Source: Frigoribacterium faeni
GTDB taxonomy: Bacteria > Actinomycetota > Actinomycetes > Actinomycetales > Microbacteriaceae
DNA length: 61,880 nucleotides
Assembly: GCF_007988805.1 (NCBI RefSeq)
Contig: NZ_BJUV01000020.1
Span: 1 to 61,880, forward strand
Direction: 5' to 3'
The first letter of the stretch is position 1, and every line of letters starts with the position of its first letter. The position numbers were made by a program, and so were the translations under genes. Under the pieces are notes generated by a model. The model did not search any database. It saw nothing but the letters and a program-made list of their open reading frames with translations, and was not told the origin of the DNA. This document shows positions 3,223 through 59,903 of this stretch, one piece after another.

Positions 3223-3261
3223 GGAGGCGCGGGTCGGCCCACCGGCGCCGGCCGCGCCTCC
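3223..3261. terminator. Inverted pair of the dispersed repeat downstream of the EEP gene
   Basis: An exact repeat copy (GGAGGCGCGGGTCG, 3223-3236) is paired with an opposite partial copy. The arms GGAGGCGCGG (3223-3232) and CCGCGCCTCC (3252-3261) form a perfect 10-bp stem. It sits just after the stop of the minus-strand EEP gene (3270), where a terminator is expected. No T tract is present. Confidence 0.55.
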
Positions 3262-3269
3262 CGAGATCC

Positions 3270-4115
3270 CTACCGGGCCTCGTCGCTCCACTCGAGCACG
3301 GCGTGCACGGGATCGTGGTCCGACGCCGCGGCGCCGTCGAACCGCGGCGCCCCGACCCCCGCCGCCGAGACCCGCGCTCCCGGGCTCACCAGGATCCAGT
3401 CGAGCCGCCGCCCGCCCGGACGAGGCGGACCGTAGTGCGACCAGCTGCCCCATCCCGGGTCGAGGAGTCGCGCGGCCGTCTCGCGTGCGTCGGCCAGCAG
3501 TCCGTCGCGGGTCAGCTCGCCGTGCGCCGCCGAGTCGTCACGGTCGTTGAAGTCGCCCAGCACGACGGCGGGGCCGTCGAGGGCGGCGACGACCGCACGC
3601 AGTCGGCGGGCGGAGTCGAGACGCCCCCGCGCCGAGAGCGGGTCGATGTGCACCGCGAGCACGTGGAACCGTCCGCCGGTCGTGAGGTCGGCGAGCTCCG
3701 CCTGCACGACGGCCCGGGGGAACAGGGCGCCCGGTCCCCGTGATCCCGGCTCGTCGGGGCGGTCCGACAACCACCAGACCCGAGACGAGACGACGTCCAG
3801 TCGCGTCGTGTCGACGTGCAGCTCGACCCGCTCGCCGCCGCGGTGCCGATCGCGACCGCTGCCGATCGAGGTCCATCGCGGCCCGAGGCCCGCCGCGATG
3901 ACGTCGGACTGGTCGGGCATGACCTCCTGCAGGGCGAGCACGGTCGGTGCCTCGGCGCCGAGGAGGCGCGTCACCAGCGGTGCGCGCCGGCTCCAGCTGT
4001 CGGGCCGGTCGCGTCGCAGCCCCGGCAGGCGGCGTCGCACGTTGAAGGTCATCACGTGGAGGTCGGGAGGCGAGACCGGGCCCACCGTCGGCTGATCGTC
4101 CTCGGTGGGCGTCAT
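3270..4115 (-). CDS. Endonuclease/exonuclease/phosphatase family hydrolase
   Basis: A 281-residue EEP-superfamily (DNase I-like) phosphoesterase, probably metal dependent and cytoplasmic. The family's catalytic landmarks appear in order: MTFNVR (22-27), LQEV (62-65), HVLAVHIDP (151-159), GDFND (187-191) and the terminal SDHDPV (265-270). No signal peptide is visible. The ATG at 4115 overlaps the stop of the upstream penicillin-binding protein gene in an ATGA junction, so the two are translationally coupled. The substrate could be nucleic acid, a phospholipid or an inositol phosphate. The family is recognisable but the substrate is not. Confidence 0.85.
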   Translation of the reverse strand: MTPTEDDQPTVGPVSPPDLHVMTFNVRRRLPGLRRDRPDSWSRRAPLVTRLLGAEAPTVLALQEVMPDQSDVIAAGLGPRWTSIGSGRDRHRGGERVELHVDTTRLDVVSSRVWWLSDRPDEPGSRGPGALFPRAVVQAELADLTTGGRFHVLAVHIDPLSARGRLDSARRLRAVVAALDGPAVVLGDFNDRDDSAAHGELTRDGLLADARETAARLLDPGWGSWSHYGPPRPGGRRLDWILVSPGARVSAAGVGAPRFDGAAASDHDPVHAVLEWSDEAR

Positions 4116-6472
4116 CCCTCGTCGGAGTCGCCCTCGTCGCCGCCCGACCGGTCGTCTCCACCGCCTCCGCGGCCCTCGTCGCCGTCCTGCTGCCGTCCGG
4201 GGGTGTTCTGCTCGTCGGCCCCCTCGTTCCCGGCACCCTGCTCGTCACCGTCGCCGTCCCCAGCACCCGTCTGGCCGGGCGAGGCGGAGTCCGGAGACGG
4301 GGCGGGCGCCGGGGCGGGCGGGGGAGCGGGCCGCTCGGTCAGCTCGGCGCTCGGGGCGGCGAACGGCTGCCCGCCGTAGAGGGCGTTGACCGCCTGCATG
4401 TACGGCTGGAACACCCGGTGCCGCGCCGTGTCGGCTCCGCCGCCGGGGAGGGCGTTCTGCCGCATGCTCACCTCGCCCTGCACGTTGCCGACCCAGACCG
4501 CCGTCGCGACCTCGGTGGTCGAGCCGACCATCCAGGTGTCCTTGGCGTTGTCCGTGGTCCCGGTCTTGCCGAGCAGGTCGATGCCGTCGCCCGGGTTCGA
4601 CGCGGTGCCGGTGCCGCCCGGGGCGAGGACCGACTCGAGCGCGAACGCCGTCGTCGACGCCACCGCGGGGTCGATCGCCTGCCGGCAGTCGGCCGAGGGC
4701 GGGGTGACGGTCGAGCCGTCGGGGCGGGTGACGCTGTCGATGGCGATCGGGCTGCACGCCGTGCCGCCGTTGGCGATGGAGCCGAAGGCCGACGCCATCT
4801 GCAGCGGGGCGATCGCGTTGGCGCCCGACCCGAGGATGTCCGACGGGAAGATGCTGAGCTCGCGCCCGTCGGCGTTCGTCACGCCGAGGTCGCCGGCGGC
4901 GCCCGCGATGTCGCAGAGGTCGAGCTGCGAGGCCATGGCGATGAAGGCCGTGTTCACCGAGCGCGTCGTCGCCTGCAGCGGGGTCATGTCGCTCGCCCGG
5001 CCCCCGGTGTCGTTGGTCACGTCGTACGACGACGCCCCGAAGCCGCCCTGGCACGACGAGAACTCGGAGGTGTTCCACGCGTTCTTCGACGCCTGCACGC
5101 GGTCGTAGAGCGAGTTGCCGTTCTCCAGCCAGTCGACCAGCGTGAAGGCCTTGTACGTCGAGCCGACCTGGAACCCGGTCGATCCGCCGTGGCTCGCGTC
5201 GGCGGCGTAGTTGACCTGGGTCACGCCGTCGCCCTCCTGGCTGCTGCCGTAGGCGGTGTTCTGCGCCATGGCGACGATGCGCCCGGTGCGGGCCTCGGTC
5301 GAGACGAGCGAGCCGCCGAGGTCGGCGAACCCGACGCTGCCGGGCACCTGCGCCTGCAGGGTCGCCGCGGCGGCCTCCTGCACGTCGAGGTCGAGCGTCG
5401 TGATGATCTGCAGTCCGCCGCGGTTCAGCAGGGCGGCACGCTCGTCGGCCGTCTCGCCGAAGGCCGGGTCGTTCAGCACCTCGGCGCGCACGTAGTCGCA
5501 GAAGTAGGCGGCCGAGGCGGGCTGCGTGTTCGCGCAGCCGCTGGTCGACGGGGTGATCACGGGGCTCACGGGCGTCTCGACCGCCGTCGCGTACTCGTCG
5601 TCGGTGAGCATGCCCTGCTCGTCCATGTTGGCCAGCAGCAGGTCGCGGCGCTCGGTGTTCGCCGCGATGTTCTCCTCGGCGTCGATGCGGAGCGCGGCGG
5701 GGGAGTTCACGGTCGCGACCAGGCTCGCCGACTGCGCGGGCGTCAGCTCCGCGGCGGAGACCCCGAAGTAGTACTGCGCGGCGGACTCGATGCCGTACAC
5801 CCGTCCGCCGTAGTTGGCGATGTTCAGGTAGGCCGTGAGGATCTGCTCCTTGTCGAACCGCTCCTCCACGCCGATCGCCATCTTGATCTCGCGCAGCTTG
5901 CGCGGCAGCGTCGTGGTGGTGGCCTCCTCGTAGGCGGCCTCGCCGGCGGCGACGACCTCGGGGTCGCCCGACTCGAGCTGCTTCTCGGCCTGCTGCACGA
6001 GCACGTTCCGCACGTACTGCATCGTGATCGTGGAGGCGCCGCTCTCGATGTCGCCGCCCGAGACGTTCTGGAACACCGCCCGGACGGCGGCGAACGAGTC
6101 GACGCCGGCGTGCTCGTAGAAGCGCGGGTCCTCGGTGGCGATCGCGGCGTCCTTCGCGCTCTGCGCGATGTCGTCCCACCCGACCTCCCGGCGGTCCTGG
6201 GAGAAGAACTCGGCCAGCTTGACGGGCTCGCCGCCGCGGGTCGCGTAGAGCTCGCTGGTCTGCGCCTGCTCGCCGATCTCGAGCTCCTCGGGGATCGTGT
6301 TGAACGCCTGGACGCCGAAGCTCGCCCCGCTTCCCGCCACGGCGATCACGGGCGTGACGAGGATGGTCACCATCACGCCGGCCAGCACCGACAGCCCGGC
6401 CATCCCGGCGACCGCGCCGAGGGCGCCGCCCGTCCGCGACGCGAAGGAGGCGCGGGTCGTCCGACCGCTCAC
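4112..6472 (-). CDS. Bifunctional class A penicillin-binding protein
   Basis: A 786-residue peptidoglycan synthase with glycosyltransferase and transpeptidase domains, acting outside the membrane. One N-terminal transmembrane segment (about 17-48) is followed by the GT51 motifs EDPRFYEH (114-121) and GASTITMQY. The transpeptidase domain has STYK (near 438), the SVN triad and KTGTT (near 634). The tail is acidic, Pro/Gly/Asp-rich and disordered. I chose GTG at 6472 because it gives a short cytoplasmic N-terminus with a GGAG-like site upstream; the open frame continues upstream without an ATG. Residues 6-10 (TRASF) are encoded by an exact copy of the dispersed repeat. It is translationally coupled to the EEP hydrolase. 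Confidence 0.92.
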   Translation of the reverse strand: MSGRTTRASFASRTGGALGAVAGMAGLSVLAGVMVTILVTPVIAVAGSGASFGVQAFNTIPEELEIGEQAQTSELYATRGGEPVKLAEFFSQDRREVGWDDIAQSAKDAAIATEDPRFYEHAGVDSFAAVRAVFQNVSGGDIESGASTITMQYVRNVLVQQAEKQLESGDPEVVAAGEAAYEEATTTTLPRKLREIKMAIGVEERFDKEQILTAYLNIANYGGRVYGIESAAQYYFGVSAAELTPAQSASLVATVNSPAALRIDAEENIAANTERRDLLLANMDEQGMLTDDEYATAVETPVSPVITPSTSGCANTQPASAAYFCDYVRAEVLNDPAFGETADERAALLNRGGLQIITTLDLDVQEAAAATLQAQVPGSVGFADLGGSLVSTEARTGRIVAMAQNTAYGSSQEGDGVTQVNYAADASHGGSTGFQVGSTYKAFTLVDWLENGNSLYDRVQASKNAWNTSEFSSCQGGFGASSYDVTNDTGGRASDMTPLQATTRSVNTAFIAMASQLDLCDIAGAAGDLGVTNADGRELSIFPSDILGSGANAIAPLQMASAFGSIANGGTACSPIAIDSVTRPDGSTVTPPSADCRQAIDPAVASTTAFALESVLAPGGTGTASNPGDGIDLLGKTGTTDNAKDTWMVGSTTEVATAVWVGNVQGEVSMRQNALPGGGADTARHRVFQPYMQAVNALYGGQPFAAPSAELTERPAPPPAPAPAPSPDSASPGQTGAGDGDGDEQGAGNEGADEQNTPGRQQDGDEGRGGGGDDRSGGDEGDSDEG
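6446..6459 (+). repeat. Dispersed 14-bp repeat, exact copy
   Basis: GGAGGCGCGGGTCG on the plus strand. On the coding strand of the penicillin-binding protein gene it encodes the TRAS part of its N-terminal cytoplasmic tail. Confidence 0.85.
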
Positions 6473-7093: not shown

Positions 7094-7978
7094 TCAGTCG
7101 GCGAAGATCACGCCGACCGGTTCGCGCTTCTCGGCCTGGAAGCGGTCCTCCGCCCGGCCGAGCGCCCAGTACGCCGACAGCGAGAGGGAGGCGCGATCGA
7201 GGTGCCACTCGTCCTGGAAGACGACCCGCGCCTCCTTCATGGCCCCCCGCTCGCCGTGGGCGAAGACGGCGATCCGGCCGGCCGGCCGCTCGAGCGCGCG
7301 CAGGGCGGCCACGAGCGGCACCCCCGGGGTGGCCGTGCCCTCGCGGTGCAGCCAGCGCAGCTCGACCCCGGCGGGGCGCGCGAGGGCGAGCTCGTCGGCG
7401 GCCGTGTCGACCTCGATCAGGGCGAGCCCCCGGGCATCGGCCGTCATGGCCTCGAGGGCCGCCGCGATGGCGGGGACGGCCGAGTCGTCGCCGAGCAGCA
7501 GGTGCTCGACGTCGGGGCCCGGGTGGGGAGCCCAGAGGCCGCCCGGGCTCGACATCGAGAGGCGGTCGCCGGGGCGCGCCGACAGCGCCCAGGGGCCGGC
7601 GACCCCCTCGTCGCCGTGAACGACGAAGTCGATGGCGATGGTGCGGGCCGCCCGGTCGACCGAGCGGATCGTGTAGGTGCGGCGCACCGGCAGGTCGTCC
7701 GGAGCGAGCTCCGCGCGCAGGGCGTCGAGGTCGAAGGGCGGCTGCAGACCGAGACCCGGCCTCGCCAGGAGCAGCTTCACGTACGTGTCGGTGGCGGCGA
7801 GCTGCACCTCGCCGGCCTCGACGAACCCGTCGAAGGCGGGTCCGCCGAGGTGCACGCGCACGAGGTGCGGCGACACCCGCTCGGTCCGCTCCACCACGAG
7901 GACGTGCTGAGAGCGGACGGGTCGGGCGGTGCGCCCGGGAGGCGCGGCGTCGGTTCCCGGAGAGGGGGTCTCGGTCAT
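7094..7978 (-). CDS. Siderophore-interacting protein (flavin ferric-siderophore reductase)
   Basis: A 294-residue FAD-dependent ferric-siderophore reductase of the SIP family (ViuB-like), which releases iron in the cytoplasm by reduction. The FAD-binding RTYTIR (100-105) is followed by DFVVHGDEGVAGPWA. The C-terminal NAD(P)H-binding half contains LLLGDDSAVPAI and ends with the family's AYWALGRAED region. Length is normal. The ATG at 7978 follows the binding-protein gene by 26 bases, so the two are probably one transcript under the IdeR box at 9108. An exact copy of the dispersed repeat encodes EARV in the C-terminal third. Confidence 0.9.
   Translation of the reverse strand: MTETPSPGTDAAPPGRTARPVRSQHVLVVERTERVSPHLVRVHLGGPAFDGFVEAGEVQLAATDTYVKLLLARPGLGLQPPFDLDALRAELAPDDLPVRRTYTIRSVDRAARTIAIDFVVHGDEGVAGPWALSARPGDRLSMSSPGGLWAPHPGPDVEHLLLGDDSAVPAIAAALEAMTADARGLALIEVDTAADELALARPAGVELRWLHREGTATPGVPLVAALRALERPAGRIAVFAHGERGAMKEARVVFQDEWHLDRASLSLSAYWALGRAEDRFQAEKREPVGVIFAD
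7222..7235 (-). repeat. Dispersed 14-bp repeat, exact copy
   Basis: CGACCCGCGCCTCC on the plus strand. It is in frame in the siderophore-interacting protein and encodes EARV within KEARVVFQDE. Confidence 0.85.
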
Positions 7979-12056: not shown

Positions 12057-12066
12057 GATGGAGGGC

Positions 12067-12900
12067 ATGAAGATCGAACTCGACGGACTCACCGCACTCG
12101 TCACCGGATCGACCCAGGGCATCGGGTACGCGATCGCCCGGGGACTCGCCGCGGCGGGGGCCCGCGTGATCGTCAACGGACGCTCGACGGAGACCACGGG
12201 GGCGGCCCGGGCGCGCCTCCTCGACGACCTCGCCGGCGATGCCGACTTCGCCGCCCTCGACGACGATGCCAGGGAGGCGCGGGTCGTCGCCCTCGCGGCC
12301 GATCTCGCCACCGAGGCGGGCGCCCGCACCGCGCTGTTCCAGCACCCCGACGTCGACGTGCTCGTGAACAACCTCGGGATCTTCGGCTCGGCCGACGCCC
12401 TCGCCATCGACGACGACGAGTGGCGACGCTACTTCGAGACCAACGTGCTGTCGGCGGTGCGGCTGACCCGCGCCTACCTGCCGGGCATGATGCGCCGCGG
12501 CTGGGGCCGGGTGCAGTACATCGCCAGCGACTCGGCGATCGTGACGCCGGTCGAGATGATCCACTACGGGGTGTCGAAGACGGCGCTGCTCGGCGTCTCG
12601 CGCGGCTTCGCCAAGGCCGCCGCGGGGTCGGGTGTGACGGTCAACAGCGTCATCGCCGGGCCGACGCACACGGGCGGGGTCGAGGACTTCGTCCGCGAGC
12701 TGGTCGGGGACGATCTGCCGTGGGACGAGGCCCAGCACGAGTTCATACTGAAGCACCGGCCGCAGTCGCTGATCCAGCGTCTGATCGAGCCCGACGAGAT
12801 CGCGAACATGGTGGTCTACCTCAGCTCGCGCTACGCCTCGGCGACCACCGGCGGGGCGCTGCGCGTCGACGGCGGCTACGTCGACGCGATCCTCCCCTGA
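12067..12900 (+). CDS. Short-chain dehydrogenase/reductase
   Basis: An SDR-family NAD(P)-dependent oxidoreductase of 277 residues. The cofactor motif TGSTQGIG lies at about 14-21, followed by the structural NNLGI, the catalytic YGVSK (Tyr-x3-Lys) and a C-terminal [10 protein letters not shown] as in classical SDRs. Residues around 70-78 (AREARVVAL) come from an exact copy of the dispersed repeat. They sit in a loop longer than usual between strands two and three, suggesting insertion at a tolerant site. The start is taken as ATG 12067 (MKIELDG); ATG 12058 adds three residues. The substrate is unknown. Confidence 0.85.
12273..12286 (+). repeat. Dispersed 14-bp repeat, exact copy
   Basis: GGAGGCGCGGGTCG in frame in the SDR gene, encoding EARV in an extended surface loop. 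Confidence 0.85.
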
Positions 12901-13597: not shown

Positions 13598-14361
13598 GCC
13601 CGGCCGACGCCGCGCCTCCCGCCGTCCCCGCGGTGATCGTGATCGTCGCCATGAGCGACGAGGCGGCGCCGTTCGTCGCGCGGGCCTCGCGGGTCGACGA
13701 CCCGCTCGCGGTGGGCGGCTCGCTGCAGCGGGAGATCGAGATCGACGGCATCCGCATCCTGCTCGTGCAGAGCGGCATCGGCTTCGTCAACGCCGCCGGG
13801 GCCGCGACCTCGGCGATCGTGCGGGCCGGCTCGCTCGACGGCGTCGTGCCGACCGTGATCAGCGCCGGCACCGCGGCCGGCATGGGCCCGGGCATCGAGA
13901 TCGGCGACGTCGTCGCCGGGGCGGAGTACCTGAACCTCGATGCCGACGCCCGCGTCTTCGGCTACCGGCTCGGCCAGGTGCCCGGCATGCCCGCCAGCTA
14001 CCACGCCGACGAGGCCCTGATGGAGGCGGCGCTCGCCTACGGCGGGTCCGTCGCGCAGCCCGACGGCTGGGCGGTCCGCCCGGGGCTGATCGCGTCGAGC
14101 GACGCGTTCATGACGGCCGAACGGGTGATCGGCGTGCGGACGGCCTTCGCCGACGTGGTCGACGTCGACGCGGTCGACATGGAGTCGATGGCGATCGCGC
14201 AGACCTGCCACGTCCACCACGTGCCGTTCGTCTCGGTGCGCGGCATCAGCGACCTCGCCGGGCCCGATGCGCACGACGTGCACGACGAGAACCTCGCGCT
14301 CACGGCGGGTCGCTCCGCCGACGTCACGCTCGCCCTCGTGCGGGGCCTCGCCGGCCGCTGA
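13594..14361 (+). CDS. mtnN: 5'-methylthioadenosine/S-adenosylhomocysteine nucleosidase
   Basis: A 255-residue nucleosidase that removes adenine from SAH and methylthioadenosine, supplying the LuxS substrate. The family's N-terminal AMSDEAAPF, the nucleoside-binding [10 protein letters not shown], the ribose-contacting VDMESMAIA and the catalytic Asp in GISDLAG are all visible. It starts with an ATG overlapping the luxS stop by four bases. The order luxS-mtnN gives translational coupling of consecutive steps, although the nucleosidase acts first. Confidence 0.95.
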
Positions 14362-16380: not shown

Positions 16381-16413
16381 AGGAGGCGCGGGTCGAGTCG
16401 ACCCGCGCCTCCT
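16381..16413. terminator. Perfect head-to-head pair of the dispersed repeat
   Basis: The arms AGGAGGCGCGGGTCGA (16381-16396) and its exact complement (16398-16413) are separated by one base. They hold two exact copies of the 14-bp word. It lies between the convergent M6 protease and Rho_N-like genes, so it probably terminates both. The near-absent loop could also form a DNA cruciform. Confidence 0.7.
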
Positions 16414-24550: not shown

Positions 24551-25473
24551 CGCTGCCACCGCTCGGTCCGCCGCTGCAGCATCGAGTACAGCGACATCAG
24601 CACGGCCATGACGACGACCATGCCGAGGGCCAGGACGCCGGCGACGTTCTCGCGACCGAGCACCGTCTCGCTCACCAGCGCCGCCCGGATCTGCAGCGGG
24701 ACGATCTGGGCGCCCTGGCTGATGATCGCGGCGGCCGTGGCGTACGACGAGAAGGCGTTCGCGAACAGGAGCAGCAGACTGCCGACGAAGGCGGGGGCGA
24801 GCACGGGCACGACGACCGTCGAGAAGTGCTGCCGACCCGTGCCTCCGAGGGTGGCCACCGCCTCCTGCCACTGCGGACGCAGTCCCGAGACGGCGGGCAT
24901 GAACGTGATGACCATGAGCGGCACCTGAAAGTAGATGTAGGGCAGGAGGAGGCCGGGCACCTGGTAGAGCCAGACGCCTCCGGCGAAGACGTCGACCCCG
25001 AACGCGTCGAGCAGCAGCTGCGTCACGACCCCCTGGATGCCGATGGTGGCGATGAAGGCGAACGCGAGCATGACCCCGCCGAACTGCGCGAGCACGCTCG
25101 CGGCCGAGTCGATCAGGCCGCGGACCACGCCGTCGGGCCGCAGCGCCGTGAGTCCCCAGCAGACGACGGCTCCGATCACGGCGCCGACGACGGCCGTGAC
25201 CCCCGAGACCAGGGCGGAGCTGCCGAAGGCGCGCAGCACGCTCGGTTCGGCCAGGGCCGAGAGGTTGTCGAGCGTCACGCCGCCGTCGCCCCCGATGAAG
25301 CCGGTGGCGAGCGCCAGCACGCACGGCAGCACGAGGAACGCGAGGACGTAGAGCGCGAAGGGCGTCAGTCCCCACCAGGCCGCCGGACGGCGCCGACCCC
25401 CGCGAGGGTCGACGCCGTCGGAGGCCGAGGAGGCGCGGGTCGTCGCCCGGAACCTCCTCGCCACGGTCGTCAC
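24547..25473 (-). CDS. ABC importer permease, subunit 1
   Basis: A 308-residue partner permease (PotB/PhnU-like). After a basic N-terminal 35 residues it has six helices and the EAA loop EAVATLGGTGRQHFSTVVVP. The GTG at 25473 starts three bases after the binding-protein stop; a GTG three codons later is an alternative. The N-terminal TTRASSAS comes from an exact copy of the dispersed repeat, in the same place (cytoplasmic tail before the first helix) as in the penicillin-binding protein. Confidence 0.88.
   Translation of the reverse strand: MTTVARRFRATTRASSASDGVDPRGGRRRPAAWWGLTPFALYVLAFLVLPCVLALATGFIGGDGGVTLDNLSALAEPSVLRAFGSSALVSGVTAVVGAVIGAVVCWGLTALRPDGVVRGLIDSAASVLAQFGGVMLAFAFIATIGIQGVVTQLLLDAFGVDVFAGGVWLYQVPGLLLPYIYFQVPLMVITFMPAVSGLRPQWQEAVATLGGTGRQHFSTVVVPVLAPAFVGSLLLLFANAFSSYATAAAIISQGAQIVPLQIRAALVSETVLGRENVAGVLALGMVVVMAVLMSLYSMLQRRTERWQR
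25429..25442 (+). repeat. Dispersed 14-bp repeat, exact copy
   Basis: GGAGGCGCGGGTCG on the plus strand. It encodes TRAS in the cytoplasmic N-terminal tail of ABC permease subunit 1. Confidence 0.85.
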
Positions 25474-26609: not shown

Positions 26610-26944
26610 GGGGATCCGTTCGGGTGCGGGGCCTCGGTCCGTCGCGCGTGACGGCGACGAAGGGGTACCGGGCGGCCCAGGGGCACCGTAGGGAGGCGCG
26701 GCGACCGGAGGGGGGCGGGTGGGCGTCCCGCAGGTGAACGGTGCGGATCGGTCCGGCGTCGAGGATTCCATGACACGTGAGAGCTGATCATGTCAAATAT
26801 GAATGCTAATATTTATACACCTCGGTCGTGAGTCCGTCTCCGACATCGACCGAGGCGTCCGGCCGCCGGCCCGCCGCTCTCGCGTCCGCGGCGTCCGTCA
26901 CCGCTGCCCGCTCTCCACGACACCCACGAACGGAAAGTCTCCTC
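26610..26944. promoter_or_regulatory. 335-bp divergent intergenic region with an AT-rich core
   Basis: No gene is supported here. The AT-rich core at about 26786-26819 stands out against the GC-rich genome. TGACA (26771-26775) and TGTCA (26791-26795) are inverted around 15 bases. On the minus strand TGTCAA at 26791-26796 reads as a perfect -35 (TTGACA), facing the ABC importer operon. TAATAT (26808) or TATACA (26814) could be the -10 facing right, toward the DUF3060 lipoprotein. The symmetric TGACA/TGTCA site is a candidate operator. Confidence 0.45.
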
Positions 26945-33190: not shown

Positions 33191-33236
33191 GGCCCGCGCC
33201 TCCTCGTCCGCGCATCAGCGGCCGGAGGCGCGGGCC
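33191..33236. terminator. Inverted pair of the dispersed repeat after the hydrolase gene
   Basis: GGCCCGCGCCTCC (33191-33203) and its exact complement (33224-33236) form a 13-bp stem with a 20-base loop. Each arm is a variant of the 14-bp repeat (GGGCC for GGGTC), changed identically so that pairing is kept. Confidence 0.6.
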
Positions 33237-47849: not shown

Positions 47850-48667
47850 GCGGTGAGCTTTCGTGTGACGGCGGAGCCGATCGCGGCGTCCATGCCGGGG
47901 AGGGCGGACACGCGGTCGCCGAGGGCGTCGGCGCGGACGTGGCCGTCGGCTCCGCCGTAGACGGTCGCGTCGAAGAAGGTGCGCTCGCTGTCGGCGCGCT
48001 CGACGGCGCCGACCGGCCAGACGGCGGTGGTCAGGGAGGCGCGGGTCTGCTTGACGGCGCGGGCCGAGTCCTCGAGACGCCAGTGGGACTCGATTCCGAA
48101 GAAGCGCTCGTGCCGGGCCTTGATCGATCGGATCCGCTCGACGATCGCGGTGAGGGCCGGGTTCGCGGCGCGCTCGACGAGGACGTCGTAGGCGTCGCCC
48201 ATCACCCACTCGTCGACGAGGCCGGTGGTCATGTGCACGGCGACGATCGGGACGCCCTTGCCCATCGCCTCGATGGCGCGGGTGATCGGGCCGCGGCGCT
48301 CGACGGCCTCGGACGGCGTGTGCCGACGCGGACCCTCCGCCACCTCTTTCAGGCGGGGCCGACCGTGCGCCTGGAGGACCGCGTCGATCGCATCGGCGAG
48401 CCAGAACTTCTCGAACGCCCAGCTCACCAGGAACGCCGTGACGCGGGCGTCCTTATGGGTCGCCGTGACGAGGAGGTTGCGGAGGTTTTCCATCGTGGCG
48501 CTCTCGAGCCGACCGAGATGACGCAGCAGACGGAGCGCGTCGTCGTCGAGCGGGGTCGCCTCGAACGGGGCGAGGTCCAGCTCGCCGCGCAGGTTGCCCT
48601 GGGCGGTGAGGGTGAACTCGCGGATGTCGAAGTCGGTCGTGTCGTAGGGGTCACCGTCGATGCTCAA
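47846..48667 (-). CDS. Degenerate diiron-protein paralog (probable pseudoenzyme subunit)
   Basis: A 273-residue paralog of the diiron protein at 44632. The match is clear along the first 190 residues (LDLAPFEATPLDDDALRLLR and KFWLADAIDAVLQAHG against the partner's LDLDHFKKNPLSADSLRTLR and EFWHGEALAAILEVHG). The iron site is broken: Glu55 and Glu153 remain, but EFWH has become K87FWL90 and EARH has become K183ARH186. It should not hold a normal diiron centre and may be a structural partner. The start is taken as TTG 48667 after GAGAGGA; other upstream starts run into the divergent gene. A near-copy of the dispersed repeat encodes TRAS at 48035. Confidence 0.72.
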   Translation of the reverse strand: MSIDGDPYDTTDFDIREFTLTAQGNLRGELDLAPFEATPLDDDALRLLRHLGRLESATMENLRNLLVTATHKDARVTAFLVSWAFEKFWLADAIDAVLQAHGRPRLKEVAEGPRRHTPSEAVERRGPITRAIEAMGKGVPIVAVHMTTGLVDEWVMGDAYDVLVERAANPALTAIVERIRSIKARHERFFGIESHWRLEDSARAVKQTRASLTTAVWPVGAVERADSERTFFDATVYGGADGHVRADALGDRVSALPGMDAAIGSAVTRKLTA

Positions 48668-49533: not shown

Positions 49534-50423
49534 GCCGCGACGATCGTCGCGACCACCCTCGTCTCGACGCGGTCGCCCAGCGTGCGGGTGACGTCGCGAG
49601 CGACGTGCGCGACCGGTTCAGCTCGCGTGGCCACGCCATGGCCCGCTACGTCGCCCAGCGGATGGTGCTCAAGCCCACGATCTGGTCGATCACCGACGTC
49701 ACCGTCATCGATCGCGACCGTCTCGACGACCTCCACGGGGGCTTCATCGTCGTCGCCAACCACTCCAGTCACCTCGACGCCCCGCTGATCCTCGGGGCGC
49801 TGCCCCGGCGCCTCGCCCGGTACCTCGCGACGGGCGCCGCGGCCGACTACTTCTTCGACGTGCGCTGGCGCCGTCAGCTGACCGAGCTGTTCTTCAACGC
49901 CTTCCCGGTGCAGCGGGGCTCCGGGGCGCCGGCCTCCGCGGTCGACGCGACCCGCGCCTCCTCGGAGGGGGCCTCGGCCGGGTCGACCCCCGGGAGCTCG
50001 GCGCGGCGTCGCGCCGCCGCCAAGGCCGCCGCGCGCGGACGCTCGGGTCAGCCCACCGTCAGCGCCCGCTCGCTGCTGCAGCGGGGCTACCCCGTGCTGG
50101 TCTTCCCCGAGGGCACCCGCAGCAAGGACGGCACCGTCGCGCACTTCAAGCCGGGCGCCGCCGCCCTCGCCCTGGCCTGCGACGTGCCCATCGTCCCGCT
50201 GGCGCTGATCGGCGCCCACATCGCCCAGCCGCGCGGCGCGAACTGGCCCCGGCCCGGTCGTCTGCCGGTCGGCGTCGCGTTCGGCGACCCGATGCGGCCC
50301 GTCGAGGGCGAGAGCCCCGCCGCTTTCTCGCTGCGCGTGCGCACCGAGGTCCTGCGTCTCCGCGACGCGAACTCGGCCCGTATCCTGGGCCCTGACAACC
50401 CGTCCGAAGGAGCACATCGGTGA
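49530..50423 (+). CDS. PlsC-type acyltransferase, candidate DHAP/lysolipid acyltransferase
   Basis: A 297-residue 1-acylglycerol-3-phosphate acyltransferase-family protein. Motif I NHSSHLDAP (HX4D), motif II-like AFPVQRG, motif III FPEGTRSKDG and motif IV IVPLALIG are present. Between motifs II and III lies an Ala/Arg/Ser-rich insertion of about 50 residues, starting at an exact copy of the dispersed repeat (ATRASSEG). The GTG overlaps the SDR stop, and the stop overlaps the GTG of the synthase gene. In ether-lipid synthesis this would acylate DHAP before the alkyl exchange, or lyso-ether lipid afterwards. Confidence 0.88.
   Translation: MSRDDRRDHPRLDAVAQRAGDVASDVRDRFSSRGHAMARYVAQRMVLKPTIWSITDVTVIDRDRLDDLHGGFIVVANHSSHLDAPLILGALPRRLARYLATGAAADYFFDVRWRRQLTELFFNAFPVQRGSGAPASAVDATRASSEGASAGSTPGSSARRRAAAKAAARGRSGQPTVSARSLLQRGYPVLVFPEGTRSKDGTVAHFKPGAAALALACDVPIVPLALIGAHIAQPRGANWPRPGRLPVGVAFGDPMRPVEGESPAAFSLRVRTEVLRLRDANSARILGPDNPSEGAHR
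49948..49961 (-). repeat. Dispersed 14-bp repeat, exact copy
   Basis: Encodes TRAS at the start of a low-complexity insertion in the PlsC-type acyltransferase. Confidence 0.85.
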
Positions 50424-52120
50424 CCGACGTCCAGCAGCAGAAGAGCGACTCCGTCGCAGCCGTCAAGCACATGAAGTGGTGGGGCTGGGGCGTCGAGGGC
50501 GTCGCGTTCCACCACGACGACAAGCCGGCCTTCGCGCCGTTCGTCAAGAAGATCGTCGGCGTCGAGCTCTCGAGCGGGCAGCACGACACCGGCCTCAAGT
50601 TCGACGACCTCACCGTGCCGGCCTCGATCGCCGGGCCCGAGGTCGTCGACTCGCTCGTGCAGATCGTCGGCGCCGACGCCGTCGCGACCGACGACCACGA
50701 CCGCGTCGTGCACACCTACGGCAAGAGCATCCGCGACCTGATCCGCATCCGCGCCGGCATCCTCGCCCGCGTCCCCGATCTGGTCGTCTACCCCGCCGAC
50801 GAGGCCCAGGTGCAGCAGATCGTCGATCTGGCGGTCGCGTCCGACCTCGTCGTGATCCCCTTCGGCGGTGGCAGCAACATCGTCGGCAGCCTCGAGCCGC
50901 TGCCGGCCGAGACGCGCACGATCGTCTCCCTCGACATGGGCCGCCTCGACCGCGTGCTCGACATCGACGAGGACAGCGGCCTCGCCCGCATCCAGGCCGG
51001 CGGACAGGGCCCCGACCTCGAGGAGCAGCTCAACGCCCGCGGCTGGACGCTCGGCCACTTCCCCGACAGCTTCACGCACTCCACCCTCGGCGGCTGGGTC
51101 GCGACCCGCTCGTCGGGCATGCAGAGCGACAAGTACGGCGACATCGCCGACATCACCAAGGGGCTGCGCGTCGTGCGCCCCGGTGGAGTCCTCGCGATCC
51201 GGGCCGTGCCGAGCGCCTCCACGGGCCCGTCGCTGCGCGAGATGATCATCGGCTCGGAGGGGCGCCTCGGCGTCATCACCGAGGTCACCGCCCAGGTGCA
51301 CCGTCTGCCCGAGAAGCGCGAGATCCTCGCCTACCTCTTCCCGTCGTGGCACGACGGCCTCGCCGCCATGCAGGCGATCGCCGAGAGCGACGCCAGCCCC
51401 TCGGTCACGCGCGTCAGCGACTCCCACGAGACCGCCTTCTCGTTCGCCACGTCGAAGCCGGGCAAGGGCATCTCTCAGAAGATCACCGACCTGCTCCCGA
51501 CCCTGCTCAAGGCGAAGGGCTGGGACGTCGACGCGATGTGCTTGTCGTTCATCGGCTACGAGGGCGGGCCCGAGCACGTCGCGCGCACGCAGAAGACGGT
51601 CGGGAGGATCGTCAAGGCGAACCGCGGCATGGCCGTCGGCACCGGCCCCGGCAAGCTCTACGACCAGAAGAAGTTCGACACGCCCTACCTGCGCGACTTC
51701 TTCATGGACCACGGAGGCGCGGCGGACGTCTCCGAGACCGCCGCCCCCTGGTCGAAACTCCGCGACGTCTCGTCGCGCGTCTACGCCGCCGCCAACCAGG
51801 CGTTCGACCGGATCGGCGTCCAGGGCTGGATCATGGGGCACCTGTCGCACTCGTACCACTCGGGCGCCTGCCTCTACTTCACCTTCGCCTTCGAGCACGG
51901 CGACGACGCCGAGGCGCAGTACGACGTCGTGAAGCACGCGATCCAGCAGGCCTTCATCGACACGGGCGCCACCGTCAGCCACCACCACGGCGTCGGGCTC
52001 GAGCACCAGCCGTGGATGTCCCAGGACGTCTCGCCCGAGGGCGTCGCGGTCATGCAGGGCCTGTTCGACTCGGCCGACCCGGGGCGGGTGTTCAACCCCG
52101 GCAAGGTGACCGGCGCGTAG
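50420..52120 (+). CDS. Alkyldihydroxyacetonephosphate synthase (FAD-dependent)
   Basis: A 566-residue VAO-family flavoprotein matching alkyl-DHAP synthase, which swaps the acyl chain of acyl-DHAP for a fatty alcohol to form the ether bond. Diagnostic features are MKWWGWG near the N-terminus, the FAD loop PFGGGSN (147-153), GHFPDSFTHSTLGGWVATRS, the SHSYHSGACLYFTF strand, and the catalytic His run in SHHHGVG (near 521). Length is normal for bacterial homologs. The GTG at 50420 overlaps the acyltransferase stop and has AAGGAG upstream; TATCCT at 50391 could be an extra promoter. A strong terminator follows. Confidence 0.93.
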   Translation: MTDVQQQKSDSVAAVKHMKWWGWGVEGVAFHHDDKPAFAPFVKKIVGVELSSGQHDTGLKFDDLTVPASIAGPEVVDSLVQIVGADAVATDDHDRVVHTYGKSIRDLIRIRAGILARVPDLVVYPADEAQVQQIVDLAVASDLVVIPFGGGSNIVGSLEPLPAETRTIVSLDMGRLDRVLDIDEDSGLARIQAGGQGPDLEEQLNARGWTLGHFPDSFTHSTLGGWVATRSSGMQSDKYGDIADITKGLRVVRPGGVLAIRAVPSASTGPSLREMIIGSEGRLGVITEVTAQVHRLPEKREILAYLFPSWHDGLAAMQAIAESDASPSVTRVSDSHETAFSFATSKPGKGISQKITDLLPTLLKAKGWDVDAMCLSFIGYEGGPEHVARTQKTVGRIVKANRGMAVGTGPGKLYDQKKFDTPYLRDFFMDHGGAADVSETAAPWSKLRDVSSRVYAAANQAFDRIGVQGWIMGHLSHSYHSGACLYFTFAFEHGDDAEAQYDVVKHAIQQAFIDTGATVSHHHGVGLEHQPWMSQDVSPEGVAVMQGLFDSADPGRVFNPGKVTGA

Positions 52121-54690: not shown

Positions 54691-55632
54691 TCAGGAGGCG
54701 CGGCCGAGGTCGCGGAACACGTCGTCGAGTCCCGACTCGTGCACCGTGAAGCGGGCCAGGGTGAGGTCGGCGGCGGCCGCCCAGGTCATGAGGGCCGTGA
54801 CGTCTCGCTGGGCGTCGTCGGTCTCGACGACGACGAGGTCGTTCTCGGTGCGGGTCGGCCGCACCGGCAGCTCGTCGAGCGGACCCGGCGCGACGAAGCG
54901 GATGCTCGTCGTCGTGCCGGCCGTCAGGTCGGCGACCGTGCCCTCGCGCTTGATCCTGCCGGCGTGCATCAGGCCGATCCGGTCGGCGTTCTCGGCGGCC
55001 TCCTCGAGGTAGTGGGTGGTGAGGAGGAAGGTGACCCCCGCCTCCCGCAGCTCGGAGACGACGGCCCAGAGGGCGTCGCGGGCGGCGGGGTCGAGCCCGG
55101 TGGTCGGCTCGTCGAGGAACACCAGCTCGGGGGTTCCCCAGACCGCCGCCGCGAAGTCGACGCGGCGGCGCTCGCCGCCGGAGAGCTGCGCGACCCGGGC
55201 CCGCGCCTTGTGGTCGATGCCGACCAGACCGAGCACGCGGTCGACGTCGTCGTCGCGGCCCGAGACGGCGCCGGAGAGCGCCACGCTCTCGCGCACGGTC
55301 AGCTCGGGTGCGAGCCCGGAGTCCTGCAGCATCATGCCGATGCGCGGTCGGGTGCGGCGGCGGTCCGCCGGGTCGCCGCCGAGCACCTCGACGCGGCCGG
55401 CGCTGGCAGCGCGATGCCCCTCGAGCACCTCCAGCGTGGTGGTCTTGCCGGCGCCGTTGGTGCCGAGCAGGGCGTAGAGCTCGCCGCGGCGGACGACCAG
55501 ATCGACGCCGTCGACGGCGGTGAACGAGCCGTAGGCGCAGCTCAGCCCGAGCGTCGAGATCACGGCGTCGGCCCTCTCGGCGGAGTCGGCCGTGACGGCC
55601 GGACGGGGCGTGGTGTCGGTGGGGTTCGTCAT
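54691..55632 (-). CDS. ABC-2 exporter ATP-binding protein
   Basis: A 313-residue ATPase of the CcmA/NodI drug-export type. Walker A is GTNGAGKTT, followed by MMLQDSGLAPELTV, signature LSGGERRRVDFA, Walker B ELVFLDEPTTGLD and switch TTHYLEEA. The ordinary C-terminal extension ends VFRDLGRAS, whose last residues are encoded by a partial dispersed repeat. ATG 55632 (MTNPTDTT) follows the divergent intergenic region shared with the histidine kinase. That arrangement is typical of a two-component system controlling its exporter. Confidence 0.92.
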   Translation of the reverse strand: MTNPTDTTPRPAVTADSAERADAVISTLGLSCAYGSFTAVDGVDLVVRRGELYALLGTNGAGKTTTLEVLEGHRAASAGRVEVLGGDPADRRRTRPRIGMMLQDSGLAPELTVRESVALSGAVSGRDDDVDRVLGLVGIDHKARARVAQLSGGERRRVDFAAAVWGTPELVFLDEPTTGLDPAARDALWAVVSELREAGVTFLLTTHYLEEAAENADRIGLMHAGRIKREGTVADLTAGTTTSIRFVAPGPLDELPVRPTRTENDLVVVETDDAQRDVTALMTWAAAADLTLARFTVHESGLDDVFRDLGRAS

Positions 55633-55764: not shown

Positions 55765-56919
55765 ATGCCCCGCTCGACCCGCGACCGCCTGCCCGCGCTG
55801 ACGCGCATGCGCCGCTACGTGACGGCATCGTTCGTGGCGATGGTCGCCTTCTTCGCGTTCTTCTTCGGGGCGACCCTCGTCGGCGACGGCGGATCCATCG
55901 GGGTCGTGGCGGCGATGATCGCCGTGTCCGTCGTCGTGGCGGTCCATGCCGCCTTCTGGGAGCGCGGCGGACCCTGGTGGCTCACCGCCCTGTCGCTGAT
56001 CTCGTCGGCCGCCCTCTGGCTGCTCGTCCCGTTCGACGGTCAGACCGCGGGTCTCCTGCTCTACTTCGGGGTGGCGGTCGGCCTGACCACGACGACGCCG
56101 CCGTTCGCGTCGTGGTGGTGGTTCGCGATCGGGCTCGCCGTCGCGGTCGCACCCGTGGTCGTCGCCGAGCGCGACGACGTCGGGACCCTGTCGTTCCTCC
56201 TGATCGTGACGGCCGCCGTCATGACGAGCATCTACGTGGTGTTCCGGCTCAACCGCTACGCCTTCGACCTCTACCTCGAGATCGACGCCGCCCGCGAGAC
56301 CACGGCCGAGCTGGCCGTCGTGCGCGAGCGCTACCGGTTCTCGGTCGACCTGCACGACATCCAGGGTCAGGCGCTCCACGTCAGCCGGCTCCAGCTGCAG
56401 CTGGCCGACAAGACGCTCGACCGCGACCCCGAGGCCGCCCGGGCCCACCTGCGCGAGGCCGAGCAGCTGATCGTCCAGACCATCGCCGAGACGCGGCGGC
56501 TGGCCTTCGGAGAACGCCGGCTCACGTTGGCCGGCGAGCTCGCGAACTCGACGGAGCTCATCCGCGCGGCCGGCATCGACCTGACGGTCGAGGGGACGGC
56601 CCCCGTCGGGCACCCCGCCGACGACCTCTTCGGACACGCGGTGCGCGAGGCCACGACGAACCTGCTGCGCCACGCGCAGGCCGAGAGGGTGACGATCCAG
56701 CTCGCCGACGACTCCGTGGCGGTGCTCAACGACGGGGCCCTCGAGCCCACGCGCGTGCTGAGCGGACTCGCTCGGCTCGGCGAACGGTTCGCCGAGGTCG
56801 GGGGCGCGCTCGGCACGCGTCACGCCGACGGCGTGTTCCGACTCGAGGCGCGGGCCGAGCGGGTGCGACGCGACGGGTCCGCCTCGGCGACCCGCGCCTC
56901 CTCGGCGGTCGCCTCGTGA
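55765..56919 (+). CDS. DesK/NarX-type sensor histidine kinase
   Basis: A 384-residue membrane kinase. Five or six hydrophobic helices (about 18-160) with almost no extracellular loop form the sensor. The HisKA_3 domain has the phospho-acceptor His197 in FSVDLHDIQGQAL. The ATPase domain is short (HAVREATTNLLRHAQAERVT, with N-box) and lacks an obvious full G-box, as in many LiaS/DesK relatives. The last residues (ATRASSAVAS) come from an exact dispersed repeat. The GTG of the response regulator overlaps the stop. Confidence 0.9.
   Translation: MPRSTRDRLPALTRMRRYVTASFVAMVAFFAFFFGATLVGDGGSIGVVAAMIAVSVVVAVHAAFWERGGPWWLTALSLISSAALWLLVPFDGQTAGLLLYFGVAVGLTTTTPPFASWWWFAIGLAVAVAPVVVAERDDVGTLSFLLIVTAAVMTSIYVVFRLNRYAFDLYLEIDAARETTAELAVVRERYRFSVDLHDIQGQALHVSRLQLQLADKTLDRDPEAARAHLREAEQLIVQTIAETRRLAFGERRLTLAGELANSTELIRAAGIDLTVEGTAPVGHPADDLFGHAVREATTNLLRHAQAERVTIQLADDSVAVLNDGALEPTRVLSGLARLGERFAEVGGALGTRHADGVFRLEARAERVRRDGSASATRASSAVAS
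56888..56901 (-). repeat. Dispersed 14-bp repeat, exact copy
   Basis: Encodes TRAS in the last ten residues of the histidine kinase. Confidence 0.85.
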
Positions 56920-58468: not shown

Positions 58469-59857
58469 GTGGACACCCCCACCCGATCGCCGGAGCCGCA
58501 GAGCGCCGTCGAGAAGTCCGCCATCCGTAAGGTCGCCGTCCGTCTGGTGCCGTTCGTCGCGTTGATGTTCTTCATCAACTACCTCGACCGCACCGCCATC
58601 GGCTTCGCCGCCCCGAACGGCATGGAGTCCGACCTCGCCCTGTCGGCCGCCCAGTTCGGCTTCGCCTCGGGTGTGTTCTTCATCGGCTACATCCTCCTCG
58701 AGGTGCCGAGCAACCTGGCCCTCCACCGCTTCGGAGCGCGTCGCTGGCTCGCCCGCATCATGGTCTCGTGGGGCATCGTGTCGCTGCTCTTCACCTGGGT
58801 GCAGAACTTCGAGCAGCTCGTCGTGCTGCGCTTCCTGCTCGGTGTCATGGAGGCCGGGTTCTTCCCCGGCGCCATCCTGTTCCTCAGCCTGTGGGTCCCG
58901 GCCCGTCACCGCGGCAAGATCCTCGCGCTCTTCTACCTGGCGCAGCCCCTCACCTCGGTGATCGGGGCGCCGCTCGCCGGCTGGCTGATCAGCCACGACG
59001 GCATCCTCGGTCTCGAGGGCTGGCGGTTCATGTTCCTCGGCGTCTCGATCCCGGCCATCGTGATCGGCGTCATCGCCTGGTTCTACCTGAAGGACAAGCC
59101 CGCCGACGCGAAGTGGCTGACCCGCGACGAGCAGGTCTGGCTCACGGAGGCCCTGAAGAAGGAGTCCGCCGGCAAGACGGGCTCGACCGCCGGCGGGAAG
59201 CACCCCAGCATCCTCAAGGTGTTCGGCAACGGCCGCGTCTGGATGCTCGCCTTCATCTACTTCGGCTTCGTCTACGGCCTCTACGCGCTCGCCTTCTTCC
59301 TCCCGACGATCATCGGCGGGTTCCAGGAGCAGTTCGGCACCGAGTTCAGCGTCACCGAGCGCGGCTTCATCACCGCCATCCCGTACGTGCCGGCCGCGAT
59401 CGCCCTGTACTTCTGGTCGCGCGACGCCTCGCGCCGCGGTCTGCGCACCTGGCACATCGTGATCCCGGCCGTCGTCGGCGGTCTCAGCATCCCGGTCGCG
59501 CTCTTCACCGGCTCGCCCGCCGCCACCATCGCGGTCATCGCGGTCACCGCCATGGCGATCTTCTCGGCGCTGCCGAACTTCTGGACCCTCCCGACGCAGT
59601 TCCTCACCGGGGCGGCCGCCGCGGCCGGCATCGCGCTGATCAACACGATCGGCAACCTGGCCGGCTTCAGCGCCCCCTACGTCACGGGCCTCGTGACGGA
59701 CGTGACGGGCAACTACGAGGTGCCGATGTTCATCGTCGGGTTCTTCCTGCTGCTGTCCGCGGCCCTCATGGTCGTGCTCACGAAGATGAAGAAGCCCGAG
59801 GGAGCGGCCACTCCCGACGAGGCGGCCGAGCTGGCCCGCACGTCCGGTCTCGACTGA
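58469..59857 (+). CDS. MFS transporter, anion:cation symporter family
   Basis: A 462-residue twelve-helix MFS permease of the ACS type (phthalate, tartrate or hexuronate/sugar-acid carriers). The signature NYLDRTAIGFAAP lies in helix one, GARRWLARIMVSWG in the loop after helix two, and a central loop holds DKPADAKWLTRDEQVWLTEA. GTG 58469 has AAGGAG upstream; the frame extends to ATG 58388 without a ribosome site. It lies downstream of the operator and before the kinase gene, suggesting uptake of the locus's sugar or polyol acid. Confidence 0.92.
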   Translation: MDTPTRSPEPQSAVEKSAIRKVAVRLVPFVALMFFINYLDRTAIGFAAPNGMESDLALSAAQFGFASGVFFIGYILLEVPSNLALHRFGARRWLARIMVSWGIVSLLFTWVQNFEQLVVLRFLLGVMEAGFFPGAILFLSLWVPARHRGKILALFYLAQPLTSVIGAPLAGWLISHDGILGLEGWRFMFLGVSIPAIVIGVIAWFYLKDKPADAKWLTRDEQVWLTEALKKESAGKTGSTAGGKHPSILKVFGNGRVWMLAFIYFGFVYGLYALAFFLPTIIGGFQEQFGTEFSVTERGFITAIPYVPAAIALYFWSRDASRRGLRTWHIVIPAVVGGLSIPVALFTGSPAATIAVIAVTAMAIFSALPNFWTLPTQFLTGAAAAAGIALINTIGNLAGFSAPYVTGLVTDVTGNYEVPMFIVGFFLLLSAALMVVLTKMKKPEGAATPDEAAELARTSGLD

Positions 59858-59860
59858 CCT

Positions 59861-59903
59861 CGAGGAGGCGCGGGTCGCGACCGTCGCGCACCGCGCCTCC
59901 TCG
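59861..59903. terminator. Inverted pair of the dispersed repeat after the MFS gene
   Basis: CGAGGAGGCGCGG (59861-59873) and its exact complement (59891-59903) form a 13-bp stem. The left arm extends into an exact copy of the 14-bp repeat (59864-59877). It lies between MFS and kinase genes of the same direction, so it may only reduce read-through. Confidence 0.6.

What the first reader, a model, noticed from the sequence alone, without database searches (positions are those of the whole stretch)
3223..59877. A 14-bp word (GGAGGCGCGGGTCG) is scattered through the window like an uptake or chi-type signal
Seen directly: at least 12 exact copies, seven on plus (3223, 6446, 12273, 16382, 25429, 46800, 59864) and five on minus (7222, 16399, 47153, 49948, 56888). 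There are also many near copies (31125, 38903, 41431, 48035, 54694, 61694 and others). A rough base-composition estimate gives far less than one by chance. Copies occur both inside genes and between them, on both strands, about one per 5 kb. Inverted pairs sit at gene ends as terminators, and single copies sit in tolerant protein loops or termini. That is the arrangement of DNA-uptake sequences in Neisseriaceae and Pasteurellaceae. Alternatives are a recombination hotspot (chi-like), a nucleoid-protein site or a methylation target.
Basis: partly seen in the sequence, partly recalled or inferred. Interest (0 to 1): 0.88.

Follow-up and report, generated by a model that had tools for sequence, protein, structure and literature searches.

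The report
Uptake-signal-like DNA word in actinobacteria
A short DNA word is repeated hundreds of times through the genomes of the plant-associated actinobacterium Frigoribacterium, with a changed spelling in a related genus; it behaves like the self-DNA passwords that some Gram-negative bacteria use when taking up DNA, but uptake itself has not been tested.

Summary
All 12 exact copies are where stated. The genome holds 343 (175/168 by strand; reversed control 1), and all 16 searched genomes of its genus hold 93-442. The genus is Frigoribacterium by inference. The core GGAGGCGCGG has 294 copies in 857 kb against 14 expected; 182 lie in genes, against 15-27 after synonymous shuffling.

The word shows no strand bias, a rigid core with soft flanks, an excess between genes and at gene ends, and some hairpin pairs. 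It changes mainly by substitution, is nearly absent from low-G+C stretches, and is retained between species far better than matched 10-mers. A second genus (Curtobacterium by inference) spells it CTGGAGGCGCGG in many species.

Most of these are published features of DNA uptake sequences, not of chi, KOPS or REP elements. One result cuts against the textbook mechanism: G000 and two relatives lack the type IV pilus operon, apparently through one old loss, yet their words stay conserved. ComEA- and ComEC-like genes remain in G000.

Best reading: uptake specificity without a type IV pilus. No uptake was tested here.

The parts
3223..3236 (+). exact 14-bp word, intergenic; faces the core at 3252-3261
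3252..3261 (-). 10-bp core, partner of 3223 (imperfect hairpin)
6446..6459 (+). exact word, near the start of called gene 4112-6472 (-), transglycosylase/transpeptidase (scanned as 4112-7054)
7222..7235 (-). exact word, inside called gene 7094-7897 (-)
12273..12286 (+). exact word, inside called gene 12058-12900 (+), short-chain dehydrogenase
16382..16395 (+). exact word, first arm of an exact inverted pair between converging called genes
16399..16412 (-). exact word, second arm of the inverted pair
25429..25442 (+). exact word, near the start of called gene 24547-25473 (-)
46800..46813 (+). exact word, inside called gene 45495-47786 (-); not identical in any of the five relatives
47153..47166 (-). 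exact word, inside called gene 45495-47786 (-); core identical in G012 and G015, changed in G008 and G005
49948..49961 (-). exact word, inside called gene 49638-50423 (+); core identical in G008 and G005, not in G012 and G015
56888..56901 (-). exact word, at the end of called gene 55765-56919 (+); not identical in G008 and G005
59864..59877 (+). exact word, starting 6 bases after called gene 58469-59857 (+); hairpin with 59891
59891..59900 (-). 10-bp core, partner of 59864
33194..33203 (-). 10-bp core, intergenic, outward-facing pair with 33224
33224..33233 (+). 10-bp core, intergenic, partner of 33194
950..959 (-). 10-bp core, at the end of called gene 941-1567 (-)
1727..1736 (+). 10-bp core, at the end of called gene 1707-3035 (-)
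7938..7947 (+). 10-bp core, intergenic
13610..13619 (-). 10-bp core, at the start of called gene 13594-14361 (+)
26507..26516 (-). 10-bp core, inside called gene 25476-26609 (-)
26692..26701 (+). 10-bp core, intergenic
34096..34105 (+). 10-bp core, intergenic
38903..38912 (+). 10-bp core, inside a called gene (glycerol-3-phosphate dehydrogenase-like); identical in G008 and G005, replaced in G012, G001 and G015
48035..48044 (+). 10-bp core of a one-mismatch word, inside a called gene; identical in G012, G015, G008 and G005
51713..51722 (+). 10-bp core, inside a called gene; identical in G008 and G005, one mismatch in G012 and G015
54694..54703 (+). 10-bp core, at the end of called gene 54691-55632 (-); identical in G008 and G005
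61694..61703 (-). 10-bp core, at the end of called gene 59964-61706 (+)
24833..24846 (-). one-mismatch copy (core changed)
31125..31138 (+). one-mismatch copy (core changed)
36589..36602 (-). one-mismatch copy (core changed)

Best explanation
The word is a genome-wide self-DNA mark of the uptake-sequence type. Its consensus is about CCgAGGAGGCGCGGgtCG, with rigid core GGAGGCGC(G). A DNA-binding part of the cell's uptake apparatus prefers fragments that carry the core. Fragments from kin are taken in and recombined more often, so alleles with the word spread by molecular drive and accumulate where proteins and promoters tolerate them: gene ends, linkers and intergenic hairpins. A related genus has drifted to another dialect. 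Shown here by computation: abundance, core-and-flank structure, strand symmetry, change mostly by substitution, retention between species, scarcity in low-G+C DNA, a related dialect in a second genus, and ComEA- and ComEC-like genes in this genome. Inferred: that uptake is the selecting step. Also inferred: that in G000, G006 and G014, which lack the type IV pilus operon, the filament is the Flp/Tad pilus (as known in Micrococcus luteus) or none, with ComEA or a surface partner as receptor. No receptor was identified.
For: 343 copies in G000 and 93-442 in 16 of 16 genus members, reversed controls 0-2 each. Core 294 against 14 by order-4 Markov. In genes 182 against 15-27 under two synonymous-codon nulls. 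One-mismatch copies of the 14-mer: 16 at the first 8 positions, 68 at the last 6, so rigid core and soft flank. Strand balance 175/168, and 80/72 in 400 kb sampled from a single-contig relative. 109 of 294 cores intergenic where called genes cover 85% of the DNA; 32 and 28 of 182 in the first and last gene tenths. Inward-facing pairs 17 against 0.4 random; no similar flanks among 294 places. Exact retention between species 128 of 221 against 19% of GC-rich 10-mers. In 5-kb bins below 66% G+C the core is 1.6 times expectation, 7.3 times at 66-69% and 14-15 times above 69%. Dialect CTGGAGGCGCGG in genus g32, at least three times its reversed control in 28 of 40 species (my count). ComEA- and ComEC-like genes in G000; ComEC domain over cut-off in 16 of 16; a third PF00437 ATPase besides PilB/PilT in 16 of 16, Tad-type in G000 by its neighbours. 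Published uptake sequences: 65% (Haemophilus influenzae) and 35% (Neisseria gonorrhoeae) inside reading frames, about 10% as inverted repeats, non-coding excess, no orientation bias, point-mutational origin (PMC1939737, passages); gene-terminus bias in Pasteurellaceae (PMC2346458, abstract).
Against: PilB/PilT are not found in G000, G006 and G014, and the pilus operon is missing from its usual place there. Yet words are retained among these three at no visibly lower rate than in pilus-bearing pairs (different regions), and G014 has the most words of the genus. ComEC and a PF00437 ATPase also occur in four genera without PilB/PilT in which 40-kb samples showed no word of comparable strength, so neither predicts the word. 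In the window, words are not concentrated in the part that aligns with relatives (10 in 27.7 kb against 18 in 34.2 kb), while DUS are reported to accumulate in the core genome (PMC3630211, introduction). Exact intergenic words favour converging gene ends, whereas PMC1939737 says uptake sequences are not biased to places downstream of genes (passage). Spacing is not more even than random (CV 1.47). Low-G+C scarcity is only a proxy for foreign DNA. In two of three pilus-less pairs gaps at words exceeded controls. No receptor and no uptake experiment; the held library has no paper with both Frigoribacterium and natural competence.
Confidence: 0.58

Rival explanations
1. The word is bound inside the cell by a chromosome-structuring or repair protein (a nucleoid-associated or condensin-like role) that needs many scattered sites.
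For: Retention in genomes without the type IV pilus operon; even strand use; word excess tied to high-G+C, native-like DNA.
Against: A change of spelling between genera and a nearly invariable core with 294 copies in 857 kb are not features I know of for such sites (recalled). Exact copies avoid diverging gene pairs (0 of 30 intergenic exact copies), though 11 ten-mer cores lie there.
Confidence: 0.15
2. The word is a chi-like signal that controls a recombination nuclease.
For: Many copies, DNA-level signal on both strands.
Against: No replichore bias seen: 80/72 overall, and 47/36 and 33/36 in the two GC-skew classes of G005 (origin not located). The core is 9-10 bp and the consensus 14 or more; known chi sites are 5-8 bases and mostly strand-biased (recalled).
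Confidence: 0.1
3. The word is a REP-like or terminator repeat that spreads as a unit.
For: 17 inward pairs against 0.4 expected, 14 of them within 60 bases of a called gene's 3' end by my reading; predicted hairpins of -36 to -48 kcal/mol for four window pairs, without a shuffle control.
Against: 182 of 294 cores lie inside genes; no two of 294 places share flanks; gaps at words (25 of 221) are no commoner than in controls (13%) in the window set. In the second set two of three pairs had more gaps than controls (17% and 30% against 7% and 9%), but the 24 printed cases lie mostly in badly aligned linkers and only a few look like clean indels.
Confidence: 0.07
4. The words are relics of a type-IV-pilus-dependent uptake system that ended in this lineage and now decay.
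For: G000, G006 and G014 have the same GNAT-type gene in place of the pilus operon. Pilus-bearing relatives have words too.
Against: Among the pilus-less three, exact retention is 51-76% against 13-17% in controls at 84-87% DNA identity, and their 14-mer counts (343, 368, 442) are among the higher ones of the genus.
Confidence: 0.07

Closest known systems
DUS dialects of Neisseriaceae (Frye et al. 2013, PMC3630211; abstract, introduction and dialect section seen)
   Same: 10-12-mer in very high copy; related spellings in related taxa with a shared core; found as a highly over-represented 10-mer.
   Different: Lower copy number: the 10-mer core extrapolates to about 1,160 in G000, near the low end of the 943-5,918 given there. 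Gram-positive host; no uptake shown; three genomes keep the word without the pilus operon.
USS of Pasteurellaceae (PMC1939737 passages; PMC2346458 abstract)
   Same: Most copies in reading frames, about a tenth as inverted pairs, non-coding excess, no orientation bias, point-mutational origin, bias to gene termini.
   Different: Another phylum and an unrelated, G+C-rich word; here exact intergenic words favour converging gene ends. The USS receptor there is predicted to be a type IV minor pilin (PMC12616744, search listing only).
Flp-pilus-dependent transformation of Micrococcus luteus (PMC4322843 and PMC8467076, search listing and term look-ups; PMC6370729, passages)
   Same: Actinobacterium with ComEA, ComEC and Tad/Flp genes and no comG cluster.
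   Different: The term 'uptake sequence' has no match in the main text of either M. luteus paper; M. luteus itself was not searched for a word here. M. luteus has two tad-like clusters; only one Tad-type locus was looked at in G000.

Membership tests
DNA uptake sequence (DUS/USS) | Hundreds to thousands of copies, far above codon and composition expectation | tested here: met
   343 exact 14-mers and 879 AGGAGGCGCGG in G000; codon nulls
DNA uptake sequence (DUS/USS) | Conserved core with weaker flanks | tested here: met
DNA uptake sequence (DUS/USS) | No strand bias around the chromosome | tested here: met
   origin of G005 not located, sign of GC skew per 20-kb sample used instead
DNA uptake sequence (DUS/USS) | In genes and between them, with a minority of inverted pairs | tested here: met
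   182 of 294 in called genes; 17 inward pairs
DNA uptake sequence (DUS/USS) | Arises by substitution rather than insertion | tested here: met
   with the reservation that two of three pairs showed more gaps than controls
DNA uptake sequence (DUS/USS) | Scarce in foreign DNA | tested here: inconclusive
   2 cores in 23 low-G+C bins; in viral contigs 98 stretches, the 80 listed with one copy each; foreign origin of the bins not shown
DNA uptake sequence (DUS/USS) | Concentrated in the core genome | tested here: inconclusive
   Window only: 10 cores in 27.7 kb aligned to relatives, 18 in 34.2 kb not aligned; points against, small numbers, local alignment only
DNA uptake sequence (DUS/USS) | Dialects among related taxa | tested here: met
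   an unrelated word in genus g2
DNA uptake sequence (DUS/USS) | Type IV pilus with a DNA-binding minor pilin | tested here: not met
   No PilB/PilT in G000, G006, G014; present in 13 of 16
DNA uptake sequence (DUS/USS) | ComEA/ComEC import machinery | tested here: met
   the full-length NCBIfam models for ComEA and ComEC score below their curated cut-offs, the domain models above
DNA uptake sequence (DUS/USS) | DNA with the word is taken up preferentially | not testable with these tools
   needs an uptake experiment
Chi site | Orientation along the direction of replication | tested here: not met
   80/72; 47/36 and 33/36
KOPS (FtsK-orienting sequence) | Strong strand skew towards the terminus | tested here: not met
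REP/BIME elements | Extragenic palindromic units spread by insertion | tested here: not met
   182 of 294 in called genes, no shared flanks

The most novel reading that the evidence does not exclude
Gram-positive actinobacteria of the family Microbacteriaceae use genus-specific DNA uptake words, and in at least one Frigoribacterium lineage recognition works without a type IV pilus, through the Flp/Tad filament or ComEA. That would be an independently evolved self-DNA recognition system.
Probability: 0.42. Interest if true: 0.92.

Novelty: new variant of a known kind. Interest (0 to 1): 0.8.

Why it matters
Frye et al. 2013 call the need for short uptake sequences unique to Neisseria and members of the Pasteurellaceae (PMC3630211, introduction). 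A word with much the same genomic signature, and with a second spelling in a related genus, in an actinobacterial family would mean that self-DNA recognition evolved again. The three genomes without the pilus operon give a natural test of which part of the machinery reads the word. If confirmed, adding the word to DNA might also help to transform laboratory actinobacteria of this group.

Tried and rejected
Chi and KOPS were rejected for lack of strand bias. A REP-type mobile repeat was rejected because words lie mostly in genes and no two places share flanks. Codon usage as the sole cause was rejected with two nulls. A relic of a lost pilus was disfavoured by retention among pilus-less genomes. 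A simple rule 'type IV pilus present means word present' was considered and not established. Of four further genera with pilus genes sampled at 100-120 kb, G016 has a clear word. G031 and G036 have only weak or repeat-derived candidates, and G069 has none clear, though G069 has 78 AGGAGGCGCGG against 27 reversed genome-wide. G042, also with pilus genes, was not sampled. Of five genera without PilB/PilT, four were sampled at 40 kb and one (G020) not at all. The viral scan for a 15-mer gave 98 stretches; the 80 listed had one copy each, which reads as chance. Rfam had no match at gathering thresholds in the window.

Limits: genes were called by a home-made codon-score caller, so gene edges are approximate. 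k-mer expectations come from Markov models fitted to the same DNA. Words in aligned pairs are counted from both sides and across overlapping pairs, so counts such as 221 are not independent events. In the 13 window pairs not quoted in the full report, exact retention was 29-59% (5 to 19 words each) against 9-16% in controls. The G000 sample used for k-mer work is 856,880 bases, about a quarter of the genome, from contigs 1, 3, 4, 5, 6 and the window. Frigoribacterium is inferred and from equal contig lengths (G012 C6 1,374,484; G001 C1 1,588,767; G014 C1 768,173; G006 C3 1,131,900). Curtobacterium for g32 is inferred only naming two genera and showing two enriched genera. That the three pilus-less genomes go back to one loss is inferred from the shared gene, without a tree. 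The pilN and pilO labels in my notes are from reading, not from a family search. Note entry 5 gives the g2 controls as 3-8; summed over strands they are 4-8.
Full report
Observation. The 14-mer GGAGGCGCGGGTCG occurs 12 times exactly in the window, at the stated places, plus 6 times with one mismatch; shuffles give a mean of 0.59. In the genome it occurs 343 times, 175 on one strand and 168 on the other, and the reversed word once. All 16 searched genomes of the genus have 93-442 copies, with 0-2 reversed controls each. In a family sample of 199 genomes, four of this genus among them, only this genus and one other (g32: 51, 56 and 9 copies) stand out; each of the other 192 has at most 6. A scan of a collection of 84,980 species for two inward-facing copies found 48 stretches, all titled Frigoribacterium or Curtobacterium. 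With equal contig lengths this identifies the genus as Frigoribacterium; g32 is Curtobacterium by inference.

The signal. In 856,880 bases of G000 the most over-represented 10-mers belong to one motif: GGAGGCGCGG 294 copies against 14 expected, AGGAGGCGCG 265 against 11. The exact 14-mer has 84 copies against 0.2 expected. One-mismatch copies total 84 against about 6 expected, with 16 at the first eight positions and 68 at the last six. So there is a rigid core, GGAGGCGC(G), and soft flanks: A at -1, CC at -4/-3, then G, T or G, C, G downstream. In G001 the A at -1 is not preferred (34 cores), so spelling varies inside the genus too. AGGAGGCGCGG counts are 879 in G000 and 383-634 in six other genus members, against 78 or fewer in 292 genomes of other genera.

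Where it sits. Called genes cover 85% of the sample. They hold 182 of 294 cores; 109 are intergenic and 3 at an edge. Within genes the first and last tenths hold 32 and 28 of 182. Exact words per intergenic kb are 0.72 between converging genes, 0.18 in tandem gaps and 0 in diverging gaps; for the 10-mer core the figures are 1.38, 0.85 and 0.59. Shuffling synonymous codons leaves a mean of 27 (within gene) or 15 (amino-acid-pair pool) of the 182. Seventeen inward-facing pairs 15-30 bases apart occur against 0.4 in random placement, and no two of 294 places have flanks 75% alike. Strands are balanced in 400 kb of a single-contig relative, 80/72, and in both GC-skew classes. Spacing is not more even than random (CV 1.47).

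How it evolves. In the orthologous window region of G000 and five relatives, 128 of 221 words are identical in the partner, against 19% of GC-rich 10-mers; gaps (25 of 221, 11%) are no commoner than in controls (13%). In a second region the gap share was 17%, 30% and 7% in three pairs against 7%, 9% and 6% in controls; the 24 printed cases lie mostly in badly aligned linkers, and a few look like clean indels. In 5-kb bins below 66% G+C the core is 1.6 times expectation (2 found, 1.3 expected, 23 bins), 7.3 times at 66-69%, and 14-15 times above 69%. In the window the words are not concentrated in the part that aligns with relatives: 10 in 27.7 kb against 18 in 34.2 kb.

Dialects. In g32 genome G119 the top words are CTGGAGGCGCGG (52 against 0.23 in 385 kb) and neighbours, with T instead of A at -1 and a stronger upstream CGGcC. 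Across 40 g32 species this 12-mer ranges from 14 to 479 copies; 28 of the 40 have at least three times their reversed control, the other 12 do not (my count). Another genus (g2) has an unrelated word, GGATGCCGC (50 against 5.3 in 120 kb); AGCGGCATCCG is above its reversed control in 5 of 5 members (27-277 against 4-8).

Machinery. ComEA- and ComEC-like genes lie next to each other in G000 (L096); their domain models score above, their full-length NCBIfam models below the curated cut-offs. The ComEC domain is over cut-off in 16 of 16 genus members. Besides PilB and PilT, each of the 16 has another PF00437 ATPase of 139-157 bits. In G000 it stands beside a T2SSF protein and a DUF4244 protein, which I read as a Tad/Flp locus. 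A type IV pilus operon sits after rpoC in G005: PilB, PilT, PilC, pilin-like proteins and PilM by NCBIfam, a prepilin peptidase by Pfam. PilB also lies next to rpoC in G119, the rest there by reading. PilB/PilT are found in 13 of 16 genus members and not in G000, G006 and G014. In G000 the 14.5 kb between rpoC and the ribosomal genes is replaced by about 1.1 kb on one contig, so this is no assembly gap. G000, G006 and G014 all have a GNAT-type gene at this place, which suggests one old loss. Among these three, words are identical in 55% (n=40), 51% (47) and 76% (45) against 13-17% in controls at 84-87% identity. The two closest pilus-bearing pairs, in another region, gave 79% (33) against 31% at 86% and 85% (47) against 44% at 92%. 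So that pilus does not seem to be what holds the word in place.

Interpretation. The features match published descriptions of uptake sequences in most respects and fail to match chi, KOPS and REP. Differences stand: no core-genome concentration in the window, a lean of exact intergenic words to converging gene ends that PMC1939737 does not report for uptake sequences, and retention without the type IV pilus. Micrococcus luteus shows that an actinobacterium can transform with Flp pili (PMC6370729 passages; PMC4322843 title and listing). I therefore favour uptake-driven self-marking with an unknown receptor, at 0.58. In the held library, searches gave 0 papers for 'DNA uptake sequence' with Microbacteriaceae, 0 for Frigoribacterium with natural competence, 4 for Curtobacterium with natural transformation, none on that subject by title and abstract start, and 2 for a wider query, on other bacteria; one search listed 5 papers, none on an actinobacterial uptake sequence by title. 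Most subscription journals are not in it.

Noticed in passing
G119 sample (L131-L150): Two other over-represented words in this Curtobacterium-like genome: the palindrome TGCCAGCTGGCA (14 counted against 0.02) and CTGTCGCTTT (13 against 0.02).
   Followed up: no
G036 sample (L158, L159, L180, L189-L191): A dispersed longer repeat, TTCGACAGGCTCAGGGAACG-like, with 5-7 counted copies of its 12-mers in 120 kb.
   Followed up: no
G016 sample (L152, L178, L182-L185): An unrelated word GCGGCATCCG / GGATGCCGC is strongly over-represented in genus g2, which also has PilB/PilT.
   Followed up: partly
L151 (G016:C1:1-20000): Words repeat in mirror order over about 18 kb at the start of the contig, as if it held a large inverted repeat or an assembly artefact.
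   Followed up: no
G000:C6:36741-37942: Replacement of the type IV pilus operon between rpoC and the ribosomal gene cluster by a GNAT-type gene and a small gene, the GNAT gene shared with G006 and G014.
   Followed up: yes
16431-17105 in the window: A called gene with a Rho_N domain (scanned as 16431-17123) directly beside the exact inverted word pair.
   Followed up: no
G000:C5:13580-13607: Two exact words in direct tandem, end to end.
   Followed up: no
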